Below are positions 2,313 through 48,778 of a stretch of DNA of 64,000 nt, piece by piece. The translations under genes were made by a program, and so were the position numbers. This DNA comes from Solirubrobacter deserti (lineage in GTDB: Bacteria; Actinomycetota; Thermoleophilia; Solirubrobacterales; Solirubrobacteraceae), in the NCBI RefSeq assembly GCF_027587175.1, contig NZ_JAPCID010000005.1, positions 1 to 64,000 on the forward strand, in the 5' to 3' direction. Numbering within the stretch: position 1 is the stretch's first letter; each line of letters begins with the position of its first letter. The notes under the pieces are model-generated. The model did no database searches. It was not told where the DNA came from and saw only the letters and a list, made by a program, of their open reading frames with translations.

Positions 2313-3856
2313 CCGCGCAGACCCGCGAGCCGCCGCTCCGGCCGTACCGGCTCGCCGTAGCCGTATCCGTAGCCGTACCCGTCACCCGCGACCGACTCGT
2401 CGCCGGTGAGCACGAACCCGAGCTTGTCGGCCGGCATCGCGTCCGTCAGGCGCGCGAGCTCCTGCATCATCGGCCGCCGGATCAGGTTCATGCGCGCGGC
2501 GACGAGCACCGCGTCGGCCTGCGTGGAGAGCGTCATGCCGTCGCTGACCTTGAGCACCGGCGGCGTGTCCAGCAGCACGAGATCGGCGCGCTCCCGCAGC
2601 TCGCGCAGGATGCTCGCCAGCCGGCGCCCGCCGACGAACTCGCCGACGTCCGGCGGCAGCGCGCCCGCGGTCAGCACGCCCAGCGAGCCGACCGGCTCGT
2701 CCGCGCCGTACTCGACCCCCAGCGGCACCGGGACGATCGCGTCGTCGAGCCCGTGCTCACCCAGCGCGACCTCGGTCACGCCGGGCCGGCCGGCGGCGTC
2801 GAAGAAGCGCGCCAACGTGGAACGGCGGAAGTCGAGGTCCACCAGGACCACGCGCTTTCCCGACCGCGCCAACGCCACCGCCAGGTTCGCGATGATCGTC
2901 GACTTGCCCTCGCCCTGGACGGCGGACGTGACCATGATGGTCCGCGCGCCGCGGTCCAGGTTGAGGAACTCGACGTTGGACCGCAGCAACCGCAGCGGCT
3001 CGGCGGCGGCGCCGTTCGGGTACTCCATCATCACGAGCTTGTGCGACTCGCGCAGCCGCCGCGGGGGTTCGGGCAGGCGCGCCACCAACGGCAGCCCGAG
3101 GACCTCCGTGAGCTCCTCGGCCGAGCGCACGCGCGTGTCCAGCGCCTCGCGCAGGAACGCAAAGGCAAGCCCGAGCGCGAGGCCCAGCGCGATCCCGAGC
3201 GGCAGGTTGCGCAGCGGCCGCGGCGCGACCAGCGCCGCCTCGTCCGCCCGGCGCGCGACGCTCACGTTGGAGCCCTGCAGCGCCTGGATCGTCGACAGCT
3301 GCTCGTCCTTGGCCACGAGCTCGTCGTACAGCTCGCCGCGCGGCTCGTCGAGCTGCTCCACCCGCCCGCGGATGCCGCGCCGGGCGATCTCGAGCGCGCC
3401 GTTGTCGAGCGTCCGCCGGTAGGCGACGAACGACTCGGCCCACGCGGTCGCGAGCGCGACCGTCGCCGGCTCGTCGACGTCGGTCACGCGGAACTCGAGC
3501 AGGTCGGCGTTCGGCAGCACCGTGATCTGCGTGCGGTCCAGCAGCTCGCGCGGGGTCATCCCGGTCTCGCGGGACCGCTGCAGCACCAGCGCGGCGACCT
3601 CGGGCGAGCGCGCGAGCTCGGCCTGCGTCTGCGCGATCCGCTGGAAGTCGTTGCCGATCTGCTGATCGCCCAGGCCGGACAGCAGGTTGGCCAGGTTCTG
3701 GCGGCCGAGCAGCACCTGCGACGCCGCCTGGTAGGTCTTCTCCTGCAGCAGCGAGTAGCCGAGCGCGGCGGCCGTGACGAGCACCACGGTCGCCACGATC
3801 ACCCACTTGCGGCGGACCACGACGTGCAGGTAGTCCCGAAGGCTCTTGTGGTCCAT
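2309..3856 (-). CDS. Wzz-domain tyrosine autokinase for polysaccharide export
   Basis: A 515-aa fusion of a Wzz chain-length domain and a bacterial tyrosine kinase. The N-terminal cytoplasmic segment is followed by a membrane helix (about 18-37), a coiled extracellular part and a second membrane helix (about 220-235, PLGIALGLALGLAFAF). The kinase domain has a Walker A motif QGEGKST with Lys318, a Walker A' motif VVLVDLDF (about 338-345) and a Walker B LVLLDTPP (about 446). The C-terminus carries an alternating Gly-Tyr cluster (Tyr494, 496, 498, 500), the usual place for autophosphorylated tyrosines. A clear GGAGGT ribosome site lies 6 nt before the ATG at 3856, inside the end of the methyltransferase gene. 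CpsB, two genes downstream, is the expected partner phosphatase. Confidence 0.88.
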   Translation of the reverse strand: MDHKSLRDYLHVVVRRKWVIVATVVLVTAAALGYSLLQEKTYQAASQVLLGRQNLANLLSGLGDQQIGNDFQRIAQTQAELARSPEVAALVLQRSRETGMTPRELLDRTQITVLPNADLLEFRVTDVDEPATVALATAWAESFVAYRRTLDNGALEIARRGIRGRVEQLDEPRGELYDELVAKDEQLSTIQALQGSNVSVARRADEAALVAPRPLRNLPLGIALGLALGLAFAFLREALDTRVRSAEELTEVLGLPLVARLPEPPRRLRESHKLVMMEYPNGAAAEPLRLLRSNVEFLNLDRGARTIMVTSAVQGEGKSTIIANLAVALARSGKRVVLVDLDFRRSTLARFFDAAGRPGVTEVALGEHGLDDAIVPVPLGVEYGADEPVGSLGVLTAGALPPDVGEFVGGRRLASILRELRERADLVLLDTPPVLKVSDGMTLSTQADAVLVAARMNLIRRPMMQELARLTDAMPADKLGFVLTGDESVAGDGYGYGYGYGEPVRPERRLAGLRG

Positions 3857-35593: not shown

Positions 35594-35623
35594 TTGACTT
35601 CCGACCGCCGTCCGTCATAGGGT
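35594..35623 (+). promoter_or_regulatory. promoter of the secreted copper-protein operon
   Basis: TTGACT at 35594-35599, an 18-nt spacer and TAGGGT at 35618-35623 (TANNNT form). The first start codon of the 13-kb operon lies 45 bases further on, after GGGGGAGAG. No terminator is evident between the RidA gene and this element, so some read-through is possible. Confidence 0.55.
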
Positions 35624-35668
35624 GTGAGCCTCCGGTCCAGGGTTTCGAGGGGGAGAGACGGTCGAGGG

Positions 35669-38600
35669 ATGAGGAAGTCGGTCCTGCCATGGCTGGCGTG
35701 CGTAATCGTGGCGTTGATCGCCATTCCAGCGTTCGCGTCAGGCGCCGCGGTGCGCAACGCGCCCGTGCCTACGAGTGCACCTCAACCGCCGGCCGCCGCG
35801 CCGACGGTCACCTTCAAGACCTCCGCGGCTGAGACGGGCTTCACGGCGGCCGCCGCACCCGAGGCCGACCAGGCCTTCCTCGTCCGCGACAACTTCTTCC
35901 AGGACGCGTCCGGTGACGACCCCCAGGACAACCGGGTCACGATCAACGCTGGTGAGAAGGTCAGCTTCGCGCAGCTGCAGGCGGGCATGCCGCACAACGT
36001 CGCGTTCAGCAACGCGCAGCCCACGTCGTGCACCCAGCTGACGGGCAACCCGATCGACACCAACACCTCGCCCCCGATGCCCGACCTGGCGACCAACGAG
36101 GACTGGACCGGCGAGTGCCGGTTCAACACCGGCGGCACCTACAACTTCTTCTGCACCCAGCACGAGGGCATGGAGGGCACGATCGAGGTCGAAGGGGGCA
36201 CGGCGACGCCGACCCCGACGGTCACGGTCACGCCGACCCAGACGCCGAGCGGGCGTCCGCACATCGTCGCCAAGGACGCGCCGTTCAGGTTCGAGCAGGC
36301 CGCCGGCGGGGCCCCCAGCGTCACGATCAAGGTCGGTCAGACGGTCGACTTCAGCTATCCGGCGAGCCCGACGCCCAACGTCCACAACGTCGACTTCCGG
36401 CGCGACCTGACCAAGCCGACGAACGGTCCGCAGCCGACCTGCGTGCAGACCGCCGGCATCGGTCCGTATCCCGCGCCGCCGCTGCCGCAGTTCTCGCTGC
36501 CACCCGGATGGGCGGGCAACTGCACGTTCAACGAGGCGGGCCGGTTCACGTTCGTCTGCGCCGCGCACCCGGTGGAGATGCAGGGCGTGGTCGTGGTCGA
36601 GACCGACCAACCGACCGAGCCACCGGACACGACGATCACCGGCGGCCCCACCGGGTCGACGACGCAGACGTCGCACAACTTCACCTTCACGTCGGACAAG
36701 CCGGCCGCGACGTTCGAGTGCAAGCTCGACCGCCCGGGCACGCCCGGCACCTACGCCGCGTGCACCACGCCGGCCGCGTTCACCACGACCACCGACGGCG
36801 CGTACACGTTCACGGTCCGCGCGGTGCTCAACGGAACCCCCGACCCCTCGCCCGCGACACGAAGTTTCACGGTGGACAGACAACCACCGGACACCTCGAT
36901 AAACAGCGGGCCGAGCGGGACCGTCACCACGACGTCCAACGCGTTCCAGTTCGCCGGCAACGAAACGGGCGTGACGTTCGAGTGCCGCCTGGACACGCCG
37001 GCCGGCAACGGCTCCTTCGCCGCGTGCACGTCGCCGCAGAGCTATACGACGACGGCCAACGGCGCCTACACGTTCCACGTCCGCGCGCGTGACGCCGCGG
37101 GCAACGTCGACCCCGAGCCCGCCACCCGCACGTTCACCGTGGACACCGCGGCGCCGGACACGACGATCACGAGCGGCCCTACGGGCACGACCAACAACGC
37201 GTCACCGTCCTTCGGCTTCACCGCCGAGACCGGCGCGACGTTCGAGTGCCGCCTCGACGGTCCGGGCTCGACGGTCGGGACGTGGGTGGCCTGCACGTCG
37301 CCGCGCGCGGTCGGTCCGCTGACCGACGGCACCTACACGTTCAACGTGCGCGCCCGCGACCTCGCGGGCAACACGGACGCCTCGCCCGCGACGCGCACGT
37401 TCACGGTCGAGACGGCGGCGCCCGACACGAACATCACGGGCGGGCCGACCGGCACGACCAACAGCACGTCGGCGTCGTTCACGTTCACCTCGACCAAGCC
37501 CAACTCGACCTTCGAGTGCCGCCTGGACACGCCGGCGGGCAACGGCACCTTCGCCGCGTGCACGTCGCCGCAGACGTACACGACGACCGCCAACGGCGCC
37601 TACACGTTCCACGTGCGCGCCATCGACGGCGCGGGCAACCCGGACGCCTCCCCGGCGACCCGGACGTTCACGGTCGACACGAGCGCCCCGGACACGACGA
37701 TCGACTCCGGCCCGACCGGCACGATCACCAACAACTCGCCGCAGTTCACCTTCTCCAGCTCGGAGACCGGCTCGACGTTCGAGTGCCGCCTCGACGGGCC
37801 GGGCGCGACGCCCGGCACGTGGCAGACCTGCACGTCGCCGCGCATCCTCGGCTCGCTGGCCGACGGCGCGTACACGTTCAACGTGCGCGCGACCGACGGC
37901 GCCGGCAACGTCGACGCGACGCCCGCGACGCGGACGTTCACGGTCGACGCGGCGGCCCCGGACACGACGATCGACTCCGGCCCGACCGGCACGATCACGA
38001 ACGCCTCGCCGCAGTTCGCGTTCTCGAGCTCGGAGACCGGCTCGACGTTCGAGTGCCGCCTGGACGGCCCCGGCTCGGCGACGGGCACCTACCAGTCCTG
38101 CACCTCGCCGCGCACGCTCGGCCCGCTGGCCGACGGCACCTACACGTTCCTGGTGCGGGCGGTCGACGCCGCCGGCAACGCCGACGGCACGCCCGCCTCG
38201 CGGACGTTCACGGTCGACGCGACGGTGCCGAACACGACGATCGACTCCGGTCCGACCGGCACGATCACCAACGCGTCGCCGCAGTTCACGTTCTCCTCGA
38301 GCGAGCCGGGCTCGAGCTTCGAGTGCCGCCTGGACGGCCCGGGCTCGACGACGGGCACCTACCAGTCCTGCACCTCGCCGCGCACGCTCGGCCCGCTGGC
38401 CGACGGCACCTACACGTTCTCCGTCCGCGCCCTCGACGCGGCCGGGAACACGGACGCGACGCCCGCCACGCGGACGTTCACGGTCGAGACCTCGCTGCCG
38501 GACACGTCGATCACCGGCGGTCCCGTGGGCACCACGAGCAACGCGTCGCCGTCCTTCACGTTCACGTCCACCAAGCCGGGCTCGACCTTCGAGTGCCGCC

Positions 38601-41323
38601 TGGACGGCCCGGGCTCGGCGACCGGCACGTTCGCCGCCTGCACGTCGCCGCACGCGGTCGGCCCGCTGGCCGACGGCAGCTACACGCTGCAGGTCCGCGC
38701 GCGTGACGGCGCCGGCAACCTGGACCCGACGCCGGCCACGCGCCAGTTCACGGTCGACACCGCCGCGCCGAACACGACGATCGACTCCGGCCCGACCGGC
38801 ACGATCAACACGACCTCGGCGAGCTTCACGTTCTCGGGGTCCGAGCCGGGCTCCACGTTCGAGTGCAAGCTCGACACGGGCGAGTTCACCGCCTGCACGT
38901 CGCCGCAGGCCTACACGGACCTGGCGGTCGGCGAGCACACGTTCTCGGTCCGCGCCAAGGACGCGGCCGGCAACGTCGACGCGACGCCCGCCACGCGCAC
39001 GTTCACGGTGGACGCGGCGGCGCCGGACACGACGATCGACTCCGGCCCGACCGGCACGATCAACGGGACCTCGGCCACGTTCACGTTCTCGGGCTCCGAG
39101 CCGGGCTCCACGTTCGAGTGCAAGCTCGACCGCCCCGGCACGCCGGGCACCTACGCGGCCTGCACCTCGCCGCAGGCCTACACGGGCCTGGCGGCCGGCG
39201 AGCACACGTTCTCGGTCCGCGCCAAGGATGCGGCCGGCAACGTCGACGCGACGCCCGCCACGCGGACGTTCACGGTGGACACGGCCGCGCCGGACACGAC
39301 CATCACGGGCGGCCCGACGGGCGCGACGAACAACGGCTCGCCGCAGTTCACCTTCGAGTCCTCCAAGCCGGGCTCGACGTTCGAGTGCCGCCTGGACGGC
39401 CCGGGCTCGGCCACCGGCACCTGGGTGGCCTGCACGTCGCCGCGGGCGGTCGGTCCGCTGGCGGACGGCGCGTATACGTTCAACGTCCGTGCCAAGGACG
39501 CGGCGGGCAACGTCGACGACTCGCCGGCGACCCGCCAGTTCACGGTCGACACGGCCGCGCCGGACACGACGATCGACTCCGGCCCGACCCACACGGAGAC
39601 GACGTCCGCGTCGTTCACGTTCTCCAGCACGGAGGCCGGCGCGACGTTCGAGTGCAAGCTCGACCGCCCGGGCACGCCGGGCACGTTCGCCGCCTGCACC
39701 TCGCCGCAGAACTACACGGGCCTCGCGAACGGCGAGTACACGTTCTCGGTCCGCGCGAAGGATGCCGCGGGCAACGTGGACCCGACGCCCGCGACCCGGA
39801 CGTTCACGGCCGACATCAGCGGGCCGGACACGACCATCACCGGCGGTCCGACCGGCACGATCACCAACGCCTCGCCGCAGTTCACGTTCGAGGCCTCGCG
39901 ACCGAACTCGTCGTTCGAGTGCCGCCTGGACGGCCCCGGCACGGCGACCGGCACGTACGCGGCCTGCACCTCGCCGCGCACGCTCGGCCCGCTCGCCGAC
40001 GGCGAGTACACGTTCCGCGTCCGCGCCAAGAACGCCAGCGGGACCGTGGACGAGACGCCGGCGACGCGGACGTTCACGGTGGACACGACGGCGCCGAACA
40101 CGACGATCGAGTCCGGGCCGACCGGCACGGTCAGCTCGACCACGGCGACGTTCACGTTCTCCGGCTCCGAGACCGGCTCGACGTTCGAGTGCAAGCTCGA
40201 CGGGGGTGAGTTCACCGCCTGCACGTCGCCGCAGACCTACACCGGGCTGGCGGCCGGCGAGCACACGTTCTCGGTTCGCGCCAGGGACGCGGCCGGCCAC
40301 GTCGACGCGACGCCCGCGACGCGGACGTTCACCGTCGACACGACCGCGCCGGACACGACGGTCGAAGGCCCGACGGGCACGATCACGACCCCGTCGGCGT
40401 CCTTCACGTTCACCTCGACGAAGCCCAACTCGACGTTCGAGTGCAAGCTCGACCGTCCCTCGGGCGCCGGCACCTACGCCGCATGCACGTCGCCGCAGGC
40501 CTACACCGGCCTCGCGAACGGCGCGTACACGTTCTCCGTCCGCGCCAAGGACGCGGCCGGCAACGTCGACGCCACGCCCGCCACGCGCACCTTCACGGTG
40601 CAGGTGGCGGCGCCGGACACGACCATCACGGGCGGCCCGACCGGCACGATCAGCGAGACCACGCAGACGTTCACCTTCAGCGGTGACGCCGGCGTGACGT
40701 TCGAGTGCCGCCTGGACACGCCGGCCGGCCAGGGCGAGTTCTCGGCCTGCACGTCGCCGAAGACCTACACCGCGTCCACCTCCGGCAACTACACGTTCTG
40801 GGTGCGGGCGAAGGACGCGAACGGCACGGTCGACCCGACGCCCGCGAGCCGGACCTTCACCCTGCAGGCCGGGACCCCGACGGAGACGTCGGTGGACGCC
40901 GAGGTGTCCGGCATCGTGCCCACCGTCCTGGGCCTGACGCTCAACGGCCCGGCGGCCTTCCCGCCGTTCATCCCGGGCGTCGGCACGACCTACGAGGCGA
41001 CGCTCGGCGCGACGATCACGAGTTCCGCCGACAAGGCCGAGCTCGCGGTGGTCGACCGAACCGGCGTGCAGCCCGGGCGGCTGGTCAACGGCACTTACGT
41101 GCTGACCGATCCGCTGCAGGTGCGGGCGCTGCGAGCCGGCCAGGACAACCCGCTGTGGAACCCGGTCAGCGCCACCCCGGTGCGCCTGCTCGCGTACCCC
41201 GCCTACATCGCCTCCGACCAGGTCACGATCGCGTTCCGCCAGACCGTGAGAAACAACGAGGCGCTGCTCGCCGGCGAGTACACCAAGACCCTGACGTTCA
41301 CGCTCTCCTCGACTCAGCCATGA
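35669..41323 (+). CDS. giant secreted protein: two cupredoxin domains plus 16 Ig-like repeats
   Basis: A 1,884-aa exported protein with a signal peptide (SVLPWLACVIVALIAIPAFA). Two cupredoxin domains follow, each with a full type-1 copper set: His109, Cys162, His165, Met168 (FFCTQHEGM), then His239, Cys297, His300, Met304 (FVCAAHPVEM), joined by a Thr/Pro linker. Residues about 319-1735 are 16 tandem repeats of about 88 aa, each opening PDTTI.SGPTGT and containing TFEC.LD and ACTSP, a cysteine pair that should form one disulfide per repeat. The last 150 aa match the C-terminus of the next gene's product. No membrane anchor or sortase motif is seen. First gene of a five-gene operon; the next ATG overlaps its stop. 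Confidence 0.85.
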   Translation: MRKSVLPWLACVIVALIAIPAFASGAAVRNAPVPTSAPQPPAAAPTVTFKTSAAETGFTAAAAPEADQAFLVRDNFFQDASGDDPQDNRVTINAGEKVSFAQLQAGMPHNVAFSNAQPTSCTQLTGNPIDTNTSPPMPDLATNEDWTGECRFNTGGTYNFFCTQHEGMEGTIEVEGGTATPTPTVTVTPTQTPSGRPHIVAKDAPFRFEQAAGGAPSVTIKVGQTVDFSYPASPTPNVHNVDFRRDLTKPTNGPQPTCVQTAGIGPYPAPPLPQFSLPPGWAGNCTFNEAGRFTFVCAAHPVEMQGVVVVETDQPTEPPDTTITGGPTGSTTQTSHNFTFTSDKPAATFECKLDRPGTPGTYAACTTPAAFTTTTDGAYTFTVRAVLNGTPDPSPATRSFTVDRQPPDTSINSGPSGTVTTTSNAFQFAGNETGVTFECRLDTPAGNGSFAACTSPQSYTTTANGAYTFHVRARDAAGNVDPEPATRTFTVDTAAPDTTITSGPTGTTNNASPSFGFTAETGATFECRLDGPGSTVGTWVACTSPRAVGPLTDGTYTFNVRARDLAGNTDASPATRTFTVETAAPDTNITGGPTGTTNSTSASFTFTSTKPNSTFECRLDTPAGNGTFAACTSPQTYTTTANGAYTFHVRAIDGAGNPDASPATRTFTVDTSAPDTTIDSGPTGTITNNSPQFTFSSSETGSTFECRLDGPGATPGTWQTCTSPRILGSLADGAYTFNVRATDGAGNVDATPATRTFTVDAAAPDTTIDSGPTGTITNASPQFAFSSSETGSTFECRLDGPGSATGTYQSCTSPRTLGPLADGTYTFLVRAVDAAGNADGTPASRTFTVDATVPNTTIDSGPTGTITNASPQFTFSSSEPGSSFECRLDGPGSTTGTYQSCTSPRTLGPLADGTYTFSVRALDAAGNTDATPATRTFTVETSLPDTSITGGPVGTTSNASPSFTFTSTKPGSTFECRLDGPGSATGTFAACTSPHAVGPLADGSYTLQVRARDGAGNLDPTPATRQFTVDTAAPNTTIDSGPTGTINTTSASFTFSGSEPGSTFECKLDTGEFTACTSPQAYTDLAVGEHTFSVRAKDAAGNVDATPATRTFTVDAAAPDTTIDSGPTGTINGTSATFTFSGSEPGSTFECKLDRPGTPGTYAACTSPQAYTGLAAGEHTFSVRAKDAAGNVDATPATRTFTVDTAAPDTTITGGPTGATNNGSPQFTFESSKPGSTFECRLDGPGSATGTWVACTSPRAVGPLADGAYTFNVRAKDAAGNVDDSPATRQFTVDTAAPDTTIDSGPTHTETTSASFTFSSTEAGATFECKLDRPGTPGTFAACTSPQNYTGLANGEYTFSVRAKDAAGNVDPTPATRTFTADISGPDTTITGGPTGTITNASPQFTFEASRPNSSFECRLDGPGTATGTYAACTSPRTLGPLADGEYTFRVRAKNASGTVDETPATRTFTVDTTAPNTTIESGPTGTVSSTTATFTFSGSETGSTFECKLDGGEFTACTSPQTYTGLAAGEHTFSVRARDAAGHVDATPATRTFTVDTTAPDTTVEGPTGTITTPSASFTFTSTKPNSTFECKLDRPSGAGTYAACTSPQAYTGLANGAYTFSVRAKDAAGNVDATPATRTFTVQVAAPDTTITGGPTGTISETTQTFTFSGDAGVTFECRLDTPAGQGEFSACTSPKTYTASTSGNYTFWVRAKDANGTVDPTPASRTFTLQAGTPTETSVDAEVSGIVPTVLGLTLNGPAAFPPFIPGVGTTYEATLGATITSSADKAELAVVDRTGVQPGRLVNGTYVLTDPLQVRALRAGQDNPLWNPVSATPVRLLAYPAYIASDQVTIAFRQTVRNNEALLAGEYTKTLTFTLSSTQP
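36623..40873 (+). repeat. 16 tandem repeats of about 255-270 bp, coding
   Basis: All units keep the reading frame and vary between about 85 and 90 codons. Units 5, 6 and 7 (starting near 37690, 37960 and 38230) are the most alike, with long shared stretches of DNA, which suggests recent duplication or gene conversion. Units 9 and 14 lack the RPGTPGTY loop. Because the period is a multiple of three, long antisense reading frames appear as by-products. Confidence 0.9.
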
Positions 41324-44300
41324 TCACCGCCTTGCACAAGACAGCTGGACGGCGCGCGATGCTCCGCGTCGCCCTGGCCACCGTGGCGACGTGCCTTCTC
41401 GGCGCGGCGCCCGCGGCGGCCGACGCGGGCAAGGTGCTCGTGTTCACCGGCACCGCCGGTACGACCAACGGCGCCACCGCACCCGCGGCGGCGGCGATCC
41501 AGTCGCTGGCGACCGCCAACGGCTTCAGCGTCGACGTGACCAACGCCGCCACGGCGTTCACGCCGGAGGGCCTCGCGCAGTACCGCGCGGTCACGTTCGT
41601 GCACTCCGCCGGCGACGTCCTCAACGTCGATCAGCAGGAGGCGCTGCGGACGTACGTCGAAGGCGGCGGCGGCTTCGTCGGCATCGGCGAGACGGCCAAG
41701 CTCGAGGAGGGTGAGGCGTTCTTCGACACGCTCATCGGCCTGACCGGGGCCGAGCGCACCGCGGGCGTCGACACGACCTCGCAGGACGTGGAGTTCCTGG
41801 ACCGCGTGCACCCCGCCACGCGCGGCAACGCGCTGGTGTGGGAGGACCACACGGACGCGTACTACAAGTGGACGGCGAACCCCACCGGCAAGGTGCACAC
41901 CGTCGCGCGCGTGCGCTTCGGCGCGCTGCCGGACGGGACCTCGGTCACCAACGACGCCGTCACCCGCTTCGCGGGCGGCGAGAACCGCATCCAGCCCCAG
42001 CAAGAGCGCGCGGTCTCCTGGTGCCGCGACGTCGGCCAGGGCCGCTCGTTCTACACGGCCCTCGGCGGCACCGCCGCGGCCTATCAGCAGAACGCGGTCA
42101 CCCGCCAGCTGCTCGGCGCCATCCAGTGGGCGGCGGGCATGTCGCGCGGCAACTGCAAGGCGACGATCGACGCCAACTACACCGCGACGCGCGTGACGCC
42201 GCCGAACCCGGCGGGCCTGACCTCCTACACGGGTGAGATCGACGCGCTCGCGATGGCGAAGGACGGCCGCGTCTTCTACGCCGGCCGCGCGAGCTGCTTC
42301 GCCGGCATGCCGCAGGTCGTCGACTGGCAGGCGGCGGACGTCGGCAAGGGCTGCGGCACCATCCACGTCTTCGATCCCAACGTCGCCGGCAGCGACGACC
42401 AGAACCCGGCCAAGATCGCCAAGGTCGCCGAGCTGACGGTCTTCGGCGCGCGCGGGGAGGGCTCCGAGCACGGCGTCCTCGGCCTCGCCGTCGACCCCGA
42501 GTTCACGACGGGCCGTCCGTACCTCTACGTCCAGTACCACCCGTACTACAAGGGCGAGGGCGGCGCGGCCACCAACGATCCCGCCAAGCAGCTCGGCCCC
42601 GGCCTGGACCGCAAGGCGCTCATGGGCGAGCGGCGCGTGTCGCGCTTCACCTACGACCCCGCGACCAAGGCGATCGTGCCCGGGTCCGAGAAGGTCATCT
42701 TCCACTGGATGACGCAGGTCTACTCGTGCTGCCGGGTCGGCGGCTCGATGGACTTCGACTCCGACGGCAACCTGTACATCGGCACCGGCGACACGATCTC
42801 GGGCGCCGCCAACGCGTACCGCGGCGGCTACACCAACGACCACCCGAACTACACGGTCCCGGTCGACGGCCAGCCGCGCGCCAACCACGACGAGACGCCC
42901 GGCGGCGGCGAGCTCTCCTTCGCCGACGCGCGCCAGACCGCGGCCAACACCAACGCCTACGAGGGCAAGCTGCTGCGAATCAAGCCGCTGGCGAGCCCCG
43001 GCAGCGTCCCCGGCAACGGCACCACGTACACGATCCCGGGCGAGGACGCTCCGAACGGCCCGAACCTGTTCGCGCCGACGAGCGACGCGGTCAAGAACCG
43101 CCTGGCCAAGCCGGAGGTGTTCGCGATGGGCATCTCCGACCTGCGCTCGCTGGACATCGACACCGAGACGGACAAGATCTCCGCCGCATGGTCGGGCACC
43201 GAACAGCAGGCCAACTCGGTCGTGTGGGGTCCGGCGAAGACCGAGACCGCCGCGAAGATCACCGGCGCCGGCAACTACGGCTGGCCCTACTGCGCGGCCG
43301 GCAACCGCTTCAGCTACCGCTCGACGCTCGGCGCGATCGGCGGCGGGGGCGCGGCCAACCTCGGCCGGGTCGACACGCCGCGCGGCACGATCGCCGGCGG
43401 TGAGAACGAAGGCCAGGGCGCGTTCTGGGACTGCTCGAAGGCGCTTCCGAACGACTCTCGGTTCAACACCGGCCTCTCCGACATCCCCGCGCCGAAGGCC
43501 GCGAACGTCTGGTACGGCCCGCAGGGCGGTTGCTACGACTTCGCGCGTCAGGCCAACGGCGTGCCGGTCTACAACGACACGAACACGAGCATCGGCGCCG
43601 ACACCGCGCGGCACTGCCCGTGGGCGCTCGGCGGCGGCCAGTCGATCGTGACCGGCGGCACCTACCGGCGCCCCGCGCAGGCCAAGGCCGGCGCCTGGCC
43701 CGCCTACTGGGAAGGCCGCTGGTTCCTCGCGGACTTCGCCGGCTCGGGCAACGTGCGCCACGCGCTGCTGATGGACCCGGAGACCGAGGACGAGGGCGGC
43801 CAGCCCGTCTCCGCGGACTCCCTGTACGGGATCATCCCGGCGAGCCTGCTCGGCGCGCACCGCCTGATCGACCTCGACTTCGGGGCCGACGGTGCGCTGT
43901 ACGTCGCGGCCGCCTCCGGCAGCCGCCTCGGCCTGGGCAGCCAGACCGGCGTGTGGCGCTTCAGCTACACCGGCGGCACCGACACGCCCGGTCCGGACCC
44001 GGTCTGCGCGGTCCGCCCCAACAGCTCGACCGTCGACTGCAACGTGGGCCGCTCCGGCGGTGTCAGCTACGAGTGGACGTTCTCGGACGGCGGCACCGCG
44101 ACCGGCACCAACGTCAGCTACGCGTTCCGCCGCGACGGGACCCAGCAGGCGACGCTGACGGTCGTCTACGCCGACGGCGAGCGCGTGAACAAGACGATCG
44201 ACGTCGAGATCCCGCCGCTGCCCAGCGACGAGGAAGACATCGACATCATCGCCGAGGTGCCGCTGACGCTCGGGCTCACGCTCGGGACGCCGGCCACGTT

Positions 44301-44664
44301 CGAGCCGATGATCCCGGGTGTCGCCGCGACCTACACGGCGACAACGACGGCCAAGGTGCTCTCGACCGCCGGTGACGCCGCGCTGAGCATCGTCGACCGC
44401 TCCACGGTCTCGCCCGGCCACTTGGTCAACGGGCCGGCCGTGATGCCGCAGGCGTTGCGGGCCCGCGCCACCACCCCGGAGAGACCCGACGGGGCCTACC
44501 GCGCGATCTCCGGCACGCCGCTGAACGTATTCAGCTGGACGGGGCCGGTGGCCAACGAAACGGTGACGCTGGGCTTCCAGCAACCCGTCGCGACGACCGA
44601 CGCCCTGCGCGGCGGCAAGTACGCGAAGACCCTGACGTTCACGCTCTCCACCACCACGCCATGA
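41320..44664 (+). CDS. secreted ThuA / sugar-dehydrogenase-like propeller / PKD protein
   Basis: A 1,114-aa exported protein (signal peptide ending near residue 35). Residues about 38-265 are a ThuA-like glutamine-amidotransferase fold (KVLVFTGTAGTTNGATA, YVEGGGGFVGIGE). Residues about 300-890 resemble PQQ-dependent sugar dehydrogenases (GSEHGVLGLAVDPEF, GGSMDFDSDGNLYIGTGD, GNYGWPYC). In that family an H-x-GG motif precedes the FGPDG-like strand; here it is Arg472 (CCRVGG), so the catalytic His seems absent. A PKD domain (about 905-970, YEWTFSDGGTATGTNVSYAF) and a tail shared with the preceding protein follow (about 972-1114). ATG overlaps the upstream stop by 4 nt. It may bind sugars or glycans without oxidising them. 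Confidence 0.8.
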   Translation: MITALHKTAGRRAMLRVALATVATCLLGAAPAAADAGKVLVFTGTAGTTNGATAPAAAAIQSLATANGFSVDVTNAATAFTPEGLAQYRAVTFVHSAGDVLNVDQQEALRTYVEGGGGFVGIGETAKLEEGEAFFDTLIGLTGAERTAGVDTTSQDVEFLDRVHPATRGNALVWEDHTDAYYKWTANPTGKVHTVARVRFGALPDGTSVTNDAVTRFAGGENRIQPQQERAVSWCRDVGQGRSFYTALGGTAAAYQQNAVTRQLLGAIQWAAGMSRGNCKATIDANYTATRVTPPNPAGLTSYTGEIDALAMAKDGRVFYAGRASCFAGMPQVVDWQAADVGKGCGTIHVFDPNVAGSDDQNPAKIAKVAELTVFGARGEGSEHGVLGLAVDPEFTTGRPYLYVQYHPYYKGEGGAATNDPAKQLGPGLDRKALMGERRVSRFTYDPATKAIVPGSEKVIFHWMTQVYSCCRVGGSMDFDSDGNLYIGTGDTISGAANAYRGGYTNDHPNYTVPVDGQPRANHDETPGGGELSFADARQTAANTNAYEGKLLRIKPLASPGSVPGNGTTYTIPGEDAPNGPNLFAPTSDAVKNRLAKPEVFAMGISDLRSLDIDTETDKISAAWSGTEQQANSVVWGPAKTETAAKITGAGNYGWPYCAAGNRFSYRSTLGAIGGGGAANLGRVDTPRGTIAGGENEGQGAFWDCSKALPNDSRFNTGLSDIPAPKAANVWYGPQGGCYDFARQANGVPVYNDTNTSIGADTARHCPWALGGGQSIVTGGTYRRPAQAKAGAWPAYWEGRWFLADFAGSGNVRHALLMDPETEDEGGQPVSADSLYGIIPASLLGAHRLIDLDFGADGALYVAAASGSRLGLGSQTGVWRFSYTGGTDTPGPDPVCAVRPNSSTVDCNVGRSGGVSYEWTFSDGGTATGTNVSYAFRRDGTQQATLTVVYADGERVNKTIDVEIPPLPSDEEDIDIIAEVPLTLGLTLGTPATFEPMIPGVAATYTATTTAKVLSTAGDAALSIVDRSTVSPGHLVNGPAVMPQALRARATTPERPDGAYRAISGTPLNVFSWTGPVANETVTLGFQQPVATTDALRGGKYAKTLTFTLSTTTP

Positions 44665-46412
44665 AGCGATCACTGCCCTGGATCCTCTGCGCGCTGATCG
44701 CGCTCATCGCCGCGCCGGCCTTCGCGCTCGGCACTGCCGCCGACCCGGTTCAGACGGCCGACATGGTCGTCTCCGACAGTGGCTTTCGTGACTCCGGCTC
44801 CACCGACCCGGAGGACCGGACCGTCGACATCCTCGCCGGCGGCCGCGTGAACTTCAGCTACCCCGCCGGCACCGGCGAGTACAACGTGGTCTGGGACCGC
44901 GGCAGCCTCGTCCCGGACACCTGCGAGCAGACGGCCGGCCCGAACTGGGGTCACGGCACCACGCTCCCGTGGTGGACGCAGGGCCCGGGCTGGGCCGGAC
45001 ACTGCACGTTCTCCAAGCCGGGGACCTACACGTTCCACTCGGGCGTGGACCCGAACGGCTTCAAGGGCACCGTCGTCGTGCACGGGGACGCGACCCCGAC
45101 GCCGACGGTCACCGTCACCCCGACGGTCACGGCCGCGCCGACCACGGGCAAGATCAGCGCCCGCGACACGGCGAGCCCGGCCCGCAACTGGTTCCAGGAC
45201 GCGTCGAGCTCGAACACCAACGACAACTCGGTGACGATCCAGGCCGGCGGGAAGGTCACGTTCGACTACCCGACGGGGACGAACGTCCACAACGTCGACT
45301 TCCGCGAGGCGCTCAAGCCGACGAGCTGCATCAAGACCAAGTCGTCGCCGCAGATCCCGGTCCCGGACGCCGACCAGGTGTCCCCGATGCCGGACTTCGC
45401 GCAGACGCCCGGCTGGGAGGGCGAGTGCACGTTCACGACCCCCGGCACGTACTCCTTCGTGTGCGGTTCGCACCCGGTGGAGATGACGGGCACGGTCGTG
45501 GTCGTCCCGGCCACGGGTGAGCCGACGCCGACGCCGACGGCCACGGCGACCCAGACGCCCACGCAGACGCCGACCGCGACCCCGACGACCGAGCCGACAC
45601 GACCGGGCATCGTCGCGCGCGACACCGCGGAGCCGTTCAAGAACTGGTTCCAGGACGCGGCGAGCTCGGACCCGGCCGACAACTCGGTCACGGTCGCTCC
45701 GGGCAGCACGGTGGACTTCAGCTTCCCCGTGGGCGCCGGCACGAACGTGCACAACGTCGTCTTCGCGCAGGCACCGACCTCGTGCGTGCAGAAGACCGGC
45801 CTCGTCGTCGGCCCGGCCCCGCCACTGCCGCAGTTCGCGCAGCCGGCGGGCTGGTCGGGTGAATGCAAGTTCGACACGCCCGGCACATACACGTTCATCT
45901 GCTCCACGCACCCGGCGGAGATGACGGGCAGCGTGGTCGTGAGTTCCGGGGAGGAGCCGACCCCCACGCCGACGGCGACGCCTGAGCCGCCGCGCGACAC
46001 GGTCCCGGCCAAGGTGCCCAAGCCTTGGGCGGCGATCGACAAGCCCAAGCACGCGCAGATGACCGTGGCGCGGTTCCTCGAGGGCAAGCTCACCATCACG
46101 GCGCGCTGCGTGTCCGCGGGCACGGGCGAGCTGACGATGAACGTCGGCAACCAGCTGGCCGCGAAGCGCCTGCGGGTGAAGGTCCGCCAGCAGAGCACGT
46201 TCGAGATCTCGGCCGCTGCCGCGACGTGCAACCAGTTCGGGCGCTTCACGGTCCGGCTGAAACCGAACGCGCAGGCGCGAAAAGCGCTCAAGAACTACAC
46301 GAAGTCCCTGCCGGTGACGCTCACGCTCACGCTCGCCGGGCCGATCGGGACGACCACCACGACACGGACGATCACCTTGAAGGGCACGAAGGTCAAGAAG
46401 GGGCGCGTGTGA
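44661..46412 (+). CDS. secreted protein with three cupredoxin-like domains
   Basis: A 583-aa exported protein; its signal region (MKRSLPWILCALIALIAAP) resembles that of the giant protein. Domain 1 (about 33-150) keeps the fold but lacks copper ligands: the usual HNV is YNVV and no Cys-x2-His is present. Domain 2 (about 165-285) has VHNVDF with FVCGSHPVEM, and domain 3 (about 315-430) has VHNVVF with FICSTHPAEM, both complete type-1 sites. Thr/Pro linkers separate them. The last 120 aa form a basic beta domain ending KVKKGRV, of a type repeated in other secreted proteins here. Start ATGA overlap upstream; stop overlaps the oxidase start (TGATG). Probable electron carrier for the oxidase. Confidence 0.82.
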   Translation: MKRSLPWILCALIALIAAPAFALGTAADPVQTADMVVSDSGFRDSGSTDPEDRTVDILAGGRVNFSYPAGTGEYNVVWDRGSLVPDTCEQTAGPNWGHGTTLPWWTQGPGWAGHCTFSKPGTYTFHSGVDPNGFKGTVVVHGDATPTPTVTVTPTVTAAPTTGKISARDTASPARNWFQDASSSNTNDNSVTIQAGGKVTFDYPTGTNVHNVDFREALKPTSCIKTKSSPQIPVPDADQVSPMPDFAQTPGWEGECTFTTPGTYSFVCGSHPVEMTGTVVVVPATGEPTPTPTATATQTPTQTPTATPTTEPTRPGIVARDTAEPFKNWFQDAASSDPADNSVTVAPGSTVDFSFPVGAGTNVHNVVFAQAPTSCVQKTGLVVGPAPPLPQFAQPAGWSGECKFDTPGTYTFICSTHPAEMTGSVVVSSGEEPTPTPTATPEPPRDTVPAKVPKPWAAIDKPKHAQMTVARFLEGKLTITARCVSAGTGELTMNVGNQLAAKRLRVKVRQQSTFEISAAAATCNQFGRFTVRLKPNAQARKALKNYTKSLPVTLTLTLAGPIGTTTTTRTITLKGTKVKKGRV

Positions 46413-47884
46413 TGGACTTCGAACGCGACGGCATCACGCGCCGCTCGGCGATGTACTACGGGGCTTCAAGCCTCGCGCTGGTGTGCTCGTTCGACTTCGA
46501 CAAGCGGGCTCGCGCCGCGCGCGGCAAGACCAGCGCCGCGCTGCGCTCCGCCGCGTCGGGGCCGTTCGAGCCGTTCCAGCGGGACGTCCCGATCCCGGCG
46601 GTCGCCCGGCCCGTGCGCTCGAGCAAGAAGCTCGAGGAGTACGTGATGGACATGCAGCCCGGCATGGCGGAGATCCTGCCCGGGTACGAGACGCCGATCC
46701 TCGGCTACAACGGCAGCTTCCCCGGCCCGACGGTCCGGGCGCGCCGCGGGCGTGAGGTGCAGATCCTCCAGCGCAACCGCACCAACCGCTCGCTCAACGT
46801 GCACCTGCACGGCGGCGTGACGATGCCGCAGTACGACGGGCATCCGCACGACGCGATCCCGGCGGGTGAGGAGCGGCTGTACAAGTATCCGAACGTCGCC
46901 CACTCCTCGACGCTCTGGTACCACGATCACGCGCACGGCGAGACGGCGCAGACGCTGTTCGCCGGGCTCGCGGCGTTCTACCTGCTCGACGATCCCGACG
47001 ACAACCACCTGGATCTGCCGCAGGGCGACTTCGACGTCCCGCTGATGATCACGGACCGCTCGTTCAACAAGGACGGGTCCTTCCGCTACCGGCTGGACCT
47101 GGACCGCGGCTTCCGCGGCGACACGATCCTCGTCAACGGCGCGGTCGCGCCGCGGATGAAGGTCGAGCGGCGTCTGTACCGGCTGCGGTTCCTGAACGCG
47201 TCCAACGCGCGCGCCTACAACCTGGTGCTCGGCAACGACCGGGACATGATCCAGATCGGCTCCGACGGCGGCCTGCTGCCGGCGCCGGTCAAGCGCAAGA
47301 TCATCCCGATGGAGCCCGCCGAGCGCGTGGACGTGATCGTCGACTTCCGCCAGTTCGGCGTCGGCTCGAAGGTCATCCTCCACAACCAGGGCGGCGAGCC
47401 GTCGACGAGCGCCGTCATGCGCTTCGACGTCGTGCGCGGCACCGCCGAGGAGGCGCGGATCCCGAAGCTGATGCGCGAGGACGACGAGCTGCCCGAGCCC
47501 AACGCGGAGCGTTCGTGGCCGTTGACGTTCCAGGGCCTGGCCGGCGGCGCGTCGGTGTGGCAGATCGGCGGCGGCGGGTTCAGCGAGATGCGGATCGACT
47601 GCCGCCCGCGGCAGGGCTCGACCGAGCTGTGGACGTGGCGCAACCTGTCCAACCGCACGCACCCGATGCACATCCACGGCTACCACTTCAAGATCGTCAG
47701 CATGAACGGCAAGACGCCGCATCCGGCCGATCAGGGGTGGAAGGACACGGTGGCGGTCTATCCGAACGAGACCGTGGTCGTGATGCCGTACTTCGACTAC
47801 TTCCCCGGAAGGTACGTCTTCCACTGTCACGCCGCCGAGCACGGCGACATGTCGATGATGGGGCAGATGGAGGTCGTGGCATGA
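46412..47884 (+). CDS. multicopper oxidase (laccase-like)
   Basis: A 490-aa three-domain multicopper oxidase. All four copper motifs are intact: HLHGG (about 131-135), WYHDHAH (about 170-176), HPMHIHGYHF (about 418-427) and HCHAAEHGDM (about 471-480), giving the type 1, 2 and 3 sites that couple one-electron oxidation to reduction of O2 to water. A twin-arginine motif near residue 10 (ITRRSAMYYGASSLAL) suggests export by the Tat route in folded form. The substrate is unknown; bilirubin-oxidase and CotA-like enzymes look similar. It sits between two cupredoxin genes with overlapping starts, so these proteins are the most likely electron donors or copper partners. Confidence 0.88.
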   Translation: MDFERDGITRRSAMYYGASSLALVCSFDFDKRARAARGKTSAALRSAASGPFEPFQRDVPIPAVARPVRSSKKLEEYVMDMQPGMAEILPGYETPILGYNGSFPGPTVRARRGREVQILQRNRTNRSLNVHLHGGVTMPQYDGHPHDAIPAGEERLYKYPNVAHSSTLWYHDHAHGETAQTLFAGLAAFYLLDDPDDNHLDLPQGDFDVPLMITDRSFNKDGSFRYRLDLDRGFRGDTILVNGAVAPRMKVERRLYRLRFLNASNARAYNLVLGNDRDMIQIGSDGGLLPAPVKRKIIPMEPAERVDVIVDFRQFGVGSKVILHNQGGEPSTSAVMRFDVVRGTAEEARIPKLMREDDELPEPNAERSWPLTFQGLAGGASVWQIGGGGFSEMRIDCRPRQGSTELWTWRNLSNRTHPMHIHGYHFKIVSMNGKTPHPADQGWKDTVAVYPNETVVVMPYFDYFPGRYVFHCHAAEHGDMSMMGQMEVVA

Positions 47885-48669
47885 GGCTTCGTCTGCTCGT
47901 GGCCACGCTGCTGGCCTTCGCCCTGATGCCGGCCGCGACCGCGAACGCCGCGGTCGAGCGGTTCATCCAGGCCTACGACTCGCCGACGTACAAGTCGGTG
48001 TTCTGGCCGAAGACGATCCCGGCGCAGGTCGGGGATACCGTCACGTGGCGGCTGACCCAGCCGGGGAACCCGCGCGCGGCCACCCACGACGTGTGGGTCG
48101 TTCCGCCCGGCACGTCCGCGCCGGGCACGCGGCTCGGCATCTCTTTCGAGACCCCGACGGTCAGCCAGGTCGTGGACGCTCCGGGTTCCTGGTTCTTCTA
48201 CTGCTCGATCCATGCCGGGCTCACGCCGGAAGGCATGAACGGCACGGTCGAGGTGGGAACGACGGACCCCGGTCCGCCGGTCGATCCGGGCAAGCCGTGG
48301 GAGACGGGCGAGGAGCCGCCGGACCCCAACGCGCTGCCCAACGACACGACCGCACCGACGGCGTGGGAGGAGGGCGACAACGTCCCGCCGACGCTCAAGC
48401 TCGTGCGGGCGACCGCGACCGACACGGGCGCCCGCGCGCGGGTCACGGTCGAGGAGCCGGTCACCGTCACGGCGCGGCTCAAGAAGGGCAAGAAGATCGT
48501 CGCGACCAAACGCGTCGTGGTGAGCGAGCCGGGGACGTTGAACGTCAACGTGAACCTGCCCGCGCGTTTGCGGGACAAGGCCGCTCGGTACCGACTCCAG
48601 GTATGGGCGACCGACGGCGTGGATCTTGACTCGAAGGTCGCCGCCGCCTGGATCGACTTCAAGCCGTAG
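47881..48669 (+). CDS. secreted cupredoxin-domain protein
   Basis: A 262-aa exported protein with a signal peptide (LLVATLLAFALMPAATANAA). Residues about 30-130 are a cupredoxin-like domain with His in ATHDVWVV and Cys, His and Met in YCSIHAGLTPEGM; the Cys-to-Met loop is longer than in the other operon members. A Pro/Glu-rich linker (about 130-165) leads to a beta domain (TLKLVRATATDTGARARVTV). ATG at 47881 overlaps the oxidase stop. It is the last gene of the operon, followed by a strong hairpin. Confidence 0.8.
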   Translation: MRLRLLVATLLAFALMPAATANAAVERFIQAYDSPTYKSVFWPKTIPAQVGDTVTWRLTQPGNPRAATHDVWVVPPGTSAPGTRLGISFETPTVSQVVDAPGSWFFYCSIHAGLTPEGMNGTVEVGTTDPGPPVDPGKPWETGEEPPDPNALPNDTTAPTAWEEGDNVPPTLKLVRATATDTGARARVTVEEPVTVTARLKKGKKIVATKRVVVSEPGTLNVNVNLPARLRDKAARYRLQVWATDGVDLDSKVAAAWIDFKP

Positions 48670-48676
48670 GTGTTGA

Positions 48677-48704
48677 ACGGCCGCGGGCTCCGGCCCGCGG
48701 CCGT
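48677..48704 (+). terminator. terminator hairpin of the copper operon
   Basis: A 12-bp perfect stem (48677-48688 with 48693-48704, core GGCCGCGGGC) and a 4-base loop TCCG, starting 8 bases after the stop codon at 48669. The stem is nearly all G and C and has no T-run, as is usual in high-GC actinobacteria. Confidence 0.65.
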
Positions 48705-48778
48705 CGACATCACCATCCGCGATCTCGAGGCCACGGACTGGAGTGGCACCCATGGGCGGCGCTCGACAGGCTCCAGCC

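What the first reader, a model, noticed from the sequence alone, without database searches (positions are those of the whole stretch)
35594..48704. A 13-kb operon of five exported copper and glycan-type proteins ending in a multicopper oxidase
From a TTGACT-N18-TAGGGT promoter to a 12-bp hairpin there are five genes, each start overlapping the previous stop. They encode two-cupredoxin + 16 Ig repeats (1,884 aa), ThuA/sugar-dehydrogenase-like/PKD, three cupredoxins, a complete multicopper oxidase, and one more cupredoxin. In total five or more type-1 copper sites plus one laccase-type enzyme are made together and all are exported. I know of no described pathway with this set. A working idea is an extracellular electron-transfer or oxidative-polymer system in which cupredoxins shuttle electrons or copper to the oxidase and the giant repeat protein acts as scaffold.
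Basis: partly seen in the sequence, partly recalled or inferred. Interest (0 to 1): 0.78.

Follow-up and report, generated by a model that had tools for sequence, protein, structure and literature searches.

The report
Secreted copper–sugar oxidation gene cluster
A soil bacterium (Solirubrobacter) carries a five-gene operon for secreted copper proteins and an oxygen-using copper enzyme beside a sugar-dehydrogenase-like protein; related sets recur across several actinobacterial families, including next to a well-studied Streptomyces laccase, which suggests, but does not prove, that such laccases are the oxygen-consuming end of an extracellular sugar-oxidation chain.

Summary
The operon is real. 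Five overlapping genes (35669-48669) follow a TTGACT-N18-TAGGGT element conserved in S. taibaiensis and unique in the genome, and end at a strong hairpin. There are five intact type-1 copper sites plus a complete multicopper oxidase (MCO); a sixth cupredoxin domain has lost its ligands. Gene order g2-g3-g4-g5 is kept in all six Solirubrobacter species compared (an MMPL gene intervenes in two).

The main result lies outside the window. In 71 of 72 Streptomyces genomes that carry a related ThuA-GSDH protein, a two-domain laccase gene is divergent and adjacent, and in 71 a secreted cupredoxin gene follows directly; all eight of those proteins scanned end in a 3-keto-disaccharide hydrolase domain. 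Similar sets occur in three more actinobacterial families, in other orientations. I infer an extracellular chain: sugar dehydrogenase, cupredoxin, MCO, O2, with 3-keto-sugar cleavage alongside. No electron transfer was tested.

In the window itself the dehydrogenase domain keeps its propeller fold but has lost the catalytic His (now Arg) and Arg-Asn (now Ser-Asp), here and in three relatives. The window operon is therefore a derived member whose electron donor must be elsewhere. Genomes of this genus mostly lack pqqE, so cofactor supply is open.

The parts
35594..35623 (+). promoter-like element TTGACT-N18-TAGGGT
   Evidence: conserved between this genome and S. taibaiensis while flanks diverge; pattern occurs once in 7.1 Mb; not called by the generic sigma-70 scan
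35669..41323 (+). g1: secreted protein, 1884 aa, two type-1 cupredoxin domains, 16 Ig repeats, C-terminal shared domain
35876..36196 (+). g1 cupredoxin 1 (His109, Cys162, His165, Met168); domain limits approximate
36296..36613 (+). g1 cupredoxin 2 (His239, Cys297, His300, Met304); domain limits approximate
36623..40873 (+). 16 Ig-type repeats of about 88 aa (Big_13)
   Evidence: end approximate
41320..44664 (+). g2: secreted ThuA + GSDH propeller + PKD + C-terminal shared domain, 1114 aa
42154..43998 (+). g2 GSDH beta-propeller, catalytic residues lost: Arg472 (codon 42733) for His, Ser606-Asp607 (codons 43135-43140) for Arg-Asn
   Evidence: fold (model of mixed confidence, mean pLDDT 66); residues
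44661..46412 (+). g3: secreted protein, three cupredoxin domains (first without ligands) + C-terminal domain
44766..45086 (+). g3 cupredoxin-like domain 1 without copper ligands (EYNVV ... FHSGVDPNGF); limits approximate
45153..45509 (+). g3 cupredoxin 2 (His210, Cys268, His271, Met275); limits approximate
45609..45944 (+). g3 cupredoxin 3 (His364, Cys414, His417, Met421); limits approximate
46412..47884 (+). g4: Tat-like signal (ITRRSAMYYG), three-domain multicopper oxidase of the CotA/bilirubin oxidase/CueO type
47881..48669 (+). g5: secreted protein with one type-1 cupredoxin (His69, Cys108, His111, Met119) + C-terminal domain
48670..48710 (+). hairpin after g5, possible terminator (no T-run)

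Best explanation
The operon is a derived member of a recurrent actinobacterial gene set that couples extracellular sugar oxidation to O2 through copper proteins. Proposed working of the general set: a secreted GSDH-type (PQQ-family) propeller oxidises a sugar or glycoside; the electrons pass to secreted type-1 cupredoxins; these feed a secreted multicopper oxidase that reduces O2 to water; a 3-keto-disaccharide hydrolase domain in the same set cleaves the oxidised sugar. In the window species the cupredoxins and the MCO are intact, but the operon's own propeller has lost its catalytic residues. It probably serves as a binding or scaffold part, and the electron donor would be one of the intact ThuA-GSDH proteins encoded elsewhere in the genome. 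Shown: gene sets, linkage, ligands, fold, residue losses. Inferred: every electron-transfer step, the C3 position of oxidation, PQQ as cofactor, donor in trans.
For: Order g2-g3-g4-g5 in 6/6 species. All 17 Solirubrobacter MCOs form one clade of three paralogous families; loci of the other two families also carry cupredoxin and ThuA-GSDH genes. Paralogous giants carry GSDH, 3-keto-disaccharide hydrolase and cupredoxin domains in one polypeptide (L035; L204). In the own genome 6 of 11 copper-bind loci lie within 5 kb of a ThuA gene, against 3% of the sequence (p about 2e-7; that list held 21 of the 23 ThuA matches). Streptomyces: 72 of 121 genomes with a close ThuA-GSDH orthologue, 71 with a divergent adjacent two-domain laccase, 71 with a cupredoxin gene directly downstream; all eight downstream proteins scanned end in PF06439. 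Three further families: 12 of 16 fetched laccase loci have an adjacent ThuA-GSDH gene, in divergent and codirectional orders; all 12 proteins scanned, 11 carry PF06439, the twelfth (L316) is cut by the contig end. Two different MCO architectures take the same place. The active-site His is present in every other GSDH member where the motif was read.
Against: The window's GSDH domain lacks the catalytic His and the Arg-Asn pair, so the operon on its own should not oxidise sugars by that route. No pqqE above the curated cut-off in 6 of 7 genomes of the genus; PQQ would have to be taken up, or another cofactor used. The window operon has no PF06439 domain. Among 64 named MCO homologues outside the genus none had cupredoxin or ThuA-GSDH neighbours, and some two-domain laccases lack the set (L319, L326; three Streptomyces genomes). 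Linked inheritance makes the Streptomyces counts non-independent. No biochemical data.
Confidence: 0.42

Rival explanations
1. Copper handling: the MCO is a CueO-like cuprous oxidase and the cupredoxins bind or carry copper outside the cell; the ThuA-GSDH link is incidental or regulatory.
For: NCBIfam's best model for g4 is CueO, below its cut-off; many copper-binding domains in one operon; a paper reports SCO6710, two locus tags from the S. coelicolor laccase SCO6712, as putatively repressed by the copper sensor CsoR (PMC6414726).
Against: The cupredoxin sites have complete type-1 (electron-transfer) ligand sets; the most constant neighbour is a sugar-dehydrogenase/3-keto-disaccharide hydrolase protein; no palindromic TACCC-GGGTA site between laccase and ThuA genes in the Streptomyces loci (motif from memory, so weak).
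Confidence: 0.2
2. Laccase for phenols, humic matter, lignin or pigment, with cupredoxins as protein mediators and the Ig protein as surface scaffold.
For: g4 is nearest to bilirubin oxidase and CotA among solved structures; S. coelicolor SLAC oxidises phenols in vitro (PMC3918160).
Against: Does not explain the linkage to ThuA-GSDH and 3-keto-disaccharide hydrolase domains across families.
Confidence: 0.2
3. The window operon has lost its part in sugar metabolism and now serves a surface or adhesive function; the MCO acts independently.
For: Loss of GSDH residues and of one cupredoxin site; 16 Ig repeats; g2 is less constrained than g4.
Against: All MCO ligands and five cupredoxin sites are kept; g4 is the most constrained gene of those compared (dN/dS 0.19-0.31 against the three nearest species); gene order and the promoter element are kept.
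Confidence: 0.12

Closest known systems
Two-domain small laccase SLAC of Streptomyces (SCO6712 in S. coelicolor; PDB 3cg8 family)
   Same: secreted MCO; in Streptomyces its gene sits beside a ThuA-GSDH gene and a cupredoxin gene
   Different: two-domain type; g4 here is a three-domain MCO; the Streptomyces GSDH active-site residues are intact
CotA / bilirubin oxidase / CueO three-domain MCOs
   Same: sequence relationship and copper ligands of g4
   Different: 64 named homologues outside the genus have no cupredoxin or ThuA-GSDH neighbours
Soluble PQQ aldose sugar dehydrogenases (PDB 2ism, 3das, 2g8s)
   Same: propeller fold, VIA Z about 29-33
   Different: catalytic His and Arg-Asn replaced in the window protein
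HHIP, a GSDH-fold propeller in animals that binds ligands
   Same: GSDH fold, used for binding and not as a dehydrogenase (from general knowledge)
   Different: unrelated context; only an analogy for a catalytically silent propeller
Fungal AA12 pyranose dehydrogenase with cytochrome domain (CcPDH, PMC4332668)
   Same: extracellular GSDH-type propeller joined to an electron-transfer domain (abstract)
   Different: haem b domain instead of cupredoxin; no MCO in the same gene set known to me

Membership tests
Three-domain multicopper oxidase (CotA/CueO/BOD type) | all type-1, type-2 and type-3 copper ligands | tested here: met
   four HxH motifs and HCHxxxHxxxxM invariant in 17 homologues
Three-domain multicopper oxidase (CotA/CueO/BOD type) | substrate oxidation and O2 reduction | not testable with these tools
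   no biochemistry
Type-1 cupredoxin (plastocyanin/azurin-like) | His-Cys-His-Met ligands | tested here: met
   five domains (g1 x2, g3 x2, g5); g3 domain 1 fails
PQQ aldose sugar dehydrogenase (GSDH, PF07995) | propeller fold | tested here: met
   Pfam above cut-off; model Z 32.7 to 2ism
PQQ aldose sugar dehydrogenase (GSDH, PF07995) | catalytic His and PQQ-contacting Arg-Asn | tested here: not met
   Arg472 and Ser606-Asp607 in window g2; role of these residues from general knowledge of s-GDH
ThuA (PF06283) | curated Pfam score | tested here: met
   142 bits, cut-off 33.4
Actinobacterial MCO + ThuA-GSDH + cupredoxin gene set | MCO, cupredoxin and ThuA-GSDH genes adjacent | tested here: met
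   window operon; conserved in six species
Actinobacterial MCO + ThuA-GSDH + cupredoxin gene set | intact GSDH active site | tested here: not met
   intact in the S. soli and S. pratensis orthologues
Actinobacterial MCO + ThuA-GSDH + cupredoxin gene set | 3-keto-disaccharide hydrolase domain in the locus | tested here: not met
   no PF06439 hit in g1-g5; present in other loci of the genome

The most novel reading that the evidence does not exclude
A widespread, so far undescribed extracellular oxidation chain of actinobacteria in which secreted quinoprotein sugar dehydrogenases pass electrons through secreted cupredoxins to laccase-type oxidases, so that the natural reductant of bacterial laccases such as SLAC is a sugar-fed cupredoxin and not a phenol; Solirubrobacter has multiplied and partly rewired it.
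Probability: 0.3. Interest if true: 0.82.

Novelty: new variant of a known kind. Interest (0 to 1): 0.66.

Why it matters
Bacterial laccases, SLAC above all, are studied for their chemistry, and I found no paper in the searched library that ties them to a sugar-oxidation gene set. The linkage found here gives a concrete, cheap test of their natural electron donor in Streptomyces laboratory strains, and a possible reason why secreted cupredoxins occur in these organisms.

Tried and rejected
MCO homologues outside the genus as evidence of synteny: none in 64 named loci. c-type cytochromes as partners: no CxxCH protein in the clusters (one hit in flanking locus L215). Pfam name for the shared C-terminal domain: none; Foldseek gives only weak pilin-like matches. 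Copper-sensor operator in the Streptomyces laccase-ThuA intergenic regions: no hit with a motif recalled from memory, inconclusive. Literature: no paper holding both laccase and 3-keto-disaccharide hydrolase; ThuA with cupredoxin only incidental; only open-access papers are held. The S. coelicolor locus tags of the neighbours could not be checked. dN/dS values are crude (NG86, high G+C) and used only as relative constraint.

Full report
What is there. The window belongs to Solirubrobacter sp. CPCC 204708 (100% match of g4). Five genes run from 35669 to 48669 on the + strand with start/stop overlaps of 4, 4, 1 and 4 nt. Upstream, TTGACT-N18-TAGGGT (35594-35623) is kept in S. taibaiensis within diverged flanks; the pattern occurs once in the genome, though the generic promoter scan does not call it. 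A strong hairpin without T-run follows g5. The first of three cupredoxin domains in g3 has no copper ligands, so five intact type-1 sites remain beside the MCO. The GSDH domain of g2 has lost its active-site residues.

Conservation in the genus. Gene calls come from a small codon-usage script of my own. g2-g3-g4-g5 keep their order in all six species; in S. soli and S. pratensis an MMPL transporter gene lies between g2 and g3. g1 varies: in two species its place is taken by a giant ThuA-GSDH protein. The MCOs of the genus fall into three paralogous families in one clade; the loci of the other two also carry cupredoxin genes beside the MCO and ThuA-GSDH giants nearby. The genus holds 9 to 31 ThuA matches per genome. 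In the own genome copper-bind domains lie near ThuA genes more often than chance allows, and some giants combine ThuA, GSDH, PKD, 3-keto-disaccharide hydrolase (PF06439) and cupredoxin domains in one chain (L035; L204).

Outside the genus. None of 64 named MCO homologues has such neighbours. The ThuA-GSDH protein led further. Streptomyces carries a relative about 50% identical to the C11 paralogue. Of 121 genomes, 72 have a close orthologue of it; in 71 a two-domain laccase gene lies divergently upstream, and in 71 a secreted cupredoxin gene lies directly downstream on the same strand. Eight of these downstream proteins were scanned and all end in PF06439; the Pfam copper-bind score of the same proteins is weak, near the cut-off or below it. 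A search of 297 actinomycete genomes found two-domain laccases in 42. I fetched 16 laccase loci from non-Streptomyces genomes of three further families: 12 have an adjacent ThuA-GSDH gene and 13 a cupredoxin gene, some divergent, some codirectional. All 12 ThuA-GSDH proteins were scanned: 11 carry PF06439; the twelfth, L316, is cut by the end of its contig. The active-site His motif is intact in all twelve. So two different MCO architectures sit in the same kind of set, and the linkage has survived rearrangement. Genomes within one genus inherit the locus together, so the counts are not independent events.

Active site of g2. Sequence alignment and a model of mixed confidence (mean pLDDT 66; VIA Z 32.7 to 2ism, 29.7 to the S. 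coelicolor enzyme 3das) place the domain in the GSDH fold. At the position of the catalytic His the window and three relatives (S. taibaiensis, S. phytolaccae, G001) have Arg; the Arg-Asn pair is Ser-Asp. The S. soli and S. pratensis orthologues and the intact paralogues keep His, with Arg-Asn or Arg-Gln. The frame is open and dN/dS is below 1, so this looks like a silenced enzyme and not a dead gene. pqqE above its cut-off is found in one of seven genomes of the genus.

How it most likely works. Intact sets: sugar or glycoside to GSDH, to secreted cupredoxin, to MCO, to O2, with cleavage of the oxidised sugar by the PF06439 domain. In the window species the oxidase and its cupredoxins remain, and the donor would have to be another ThuA-GSDH protein. 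Rivals are copper handling, a phenol laccase and a surface role; a reported CsoR link of SCO6710 (PMC6414726) keeps the copper reading alive, though I could not confirm which gene that tag denotes.

Known or new. All parts are known families. I found no paper in the held open-access library that describes the set, which is a limited search. I rate it a new variant of a known kind: a sugar dehydrogenase to cupredoxin to oxidase chain, outside the cell.

Noticed in passing
window 40895-41320 and 44236-44661: A C-terminal domain of about 140 aa ending in KTLTFTLSTTTP is shared by g1, g2 and more than 20 other secreted Solirubrobacter proteins; confident beta model (pLDDT 91), no Pfam family, weak pilin-like fold matches. 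Possibly a surface-attachment domain.
   Followed up: partly
window g2 around 42724-42735; L268, L313-L325: Most intact ThuA-GSDH proteins of the laccase-linked type have adjacent Cys-Cys just before the catalytic His (SCCH), reminiscent of the vicinal disulfide of quinoprotein alcohol dehydrogenases (from memory); the window keeps the cysteines but not the His.
   Followed up: no
L040 (G000:C33), L043, L044, L046, L049: The second MCO family lies beside an MMPL transporter and a small membrane-anchored protein of unknown family; in L040 a sugar-binding-protein gene and a TIM-barrel gene (AP_endonuc_2) lie close by.
   Followed up: partly
own genome G000 and genus: ThuA genes are expanded to 23-31 matches per genome in most of the genus, but only 9 in S. 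pratensis (G002).
   Followed up: no
L313-L325: ThuA domains of the laccase-linked proteins of three families are split by an inserted F5/8 type C (galactose-binding-like) domain, absent from the window protein.
   Followed up: no
window 2801-2879: ARAGORN reports a tRNA with a two-base anticodon, probably a false positive.
   Followed up: no
L319 and L326: Second two-domain laccase genes in two genomes lie without ThuA-GSDH or cupredoxin neighbours.
   Followed up: no
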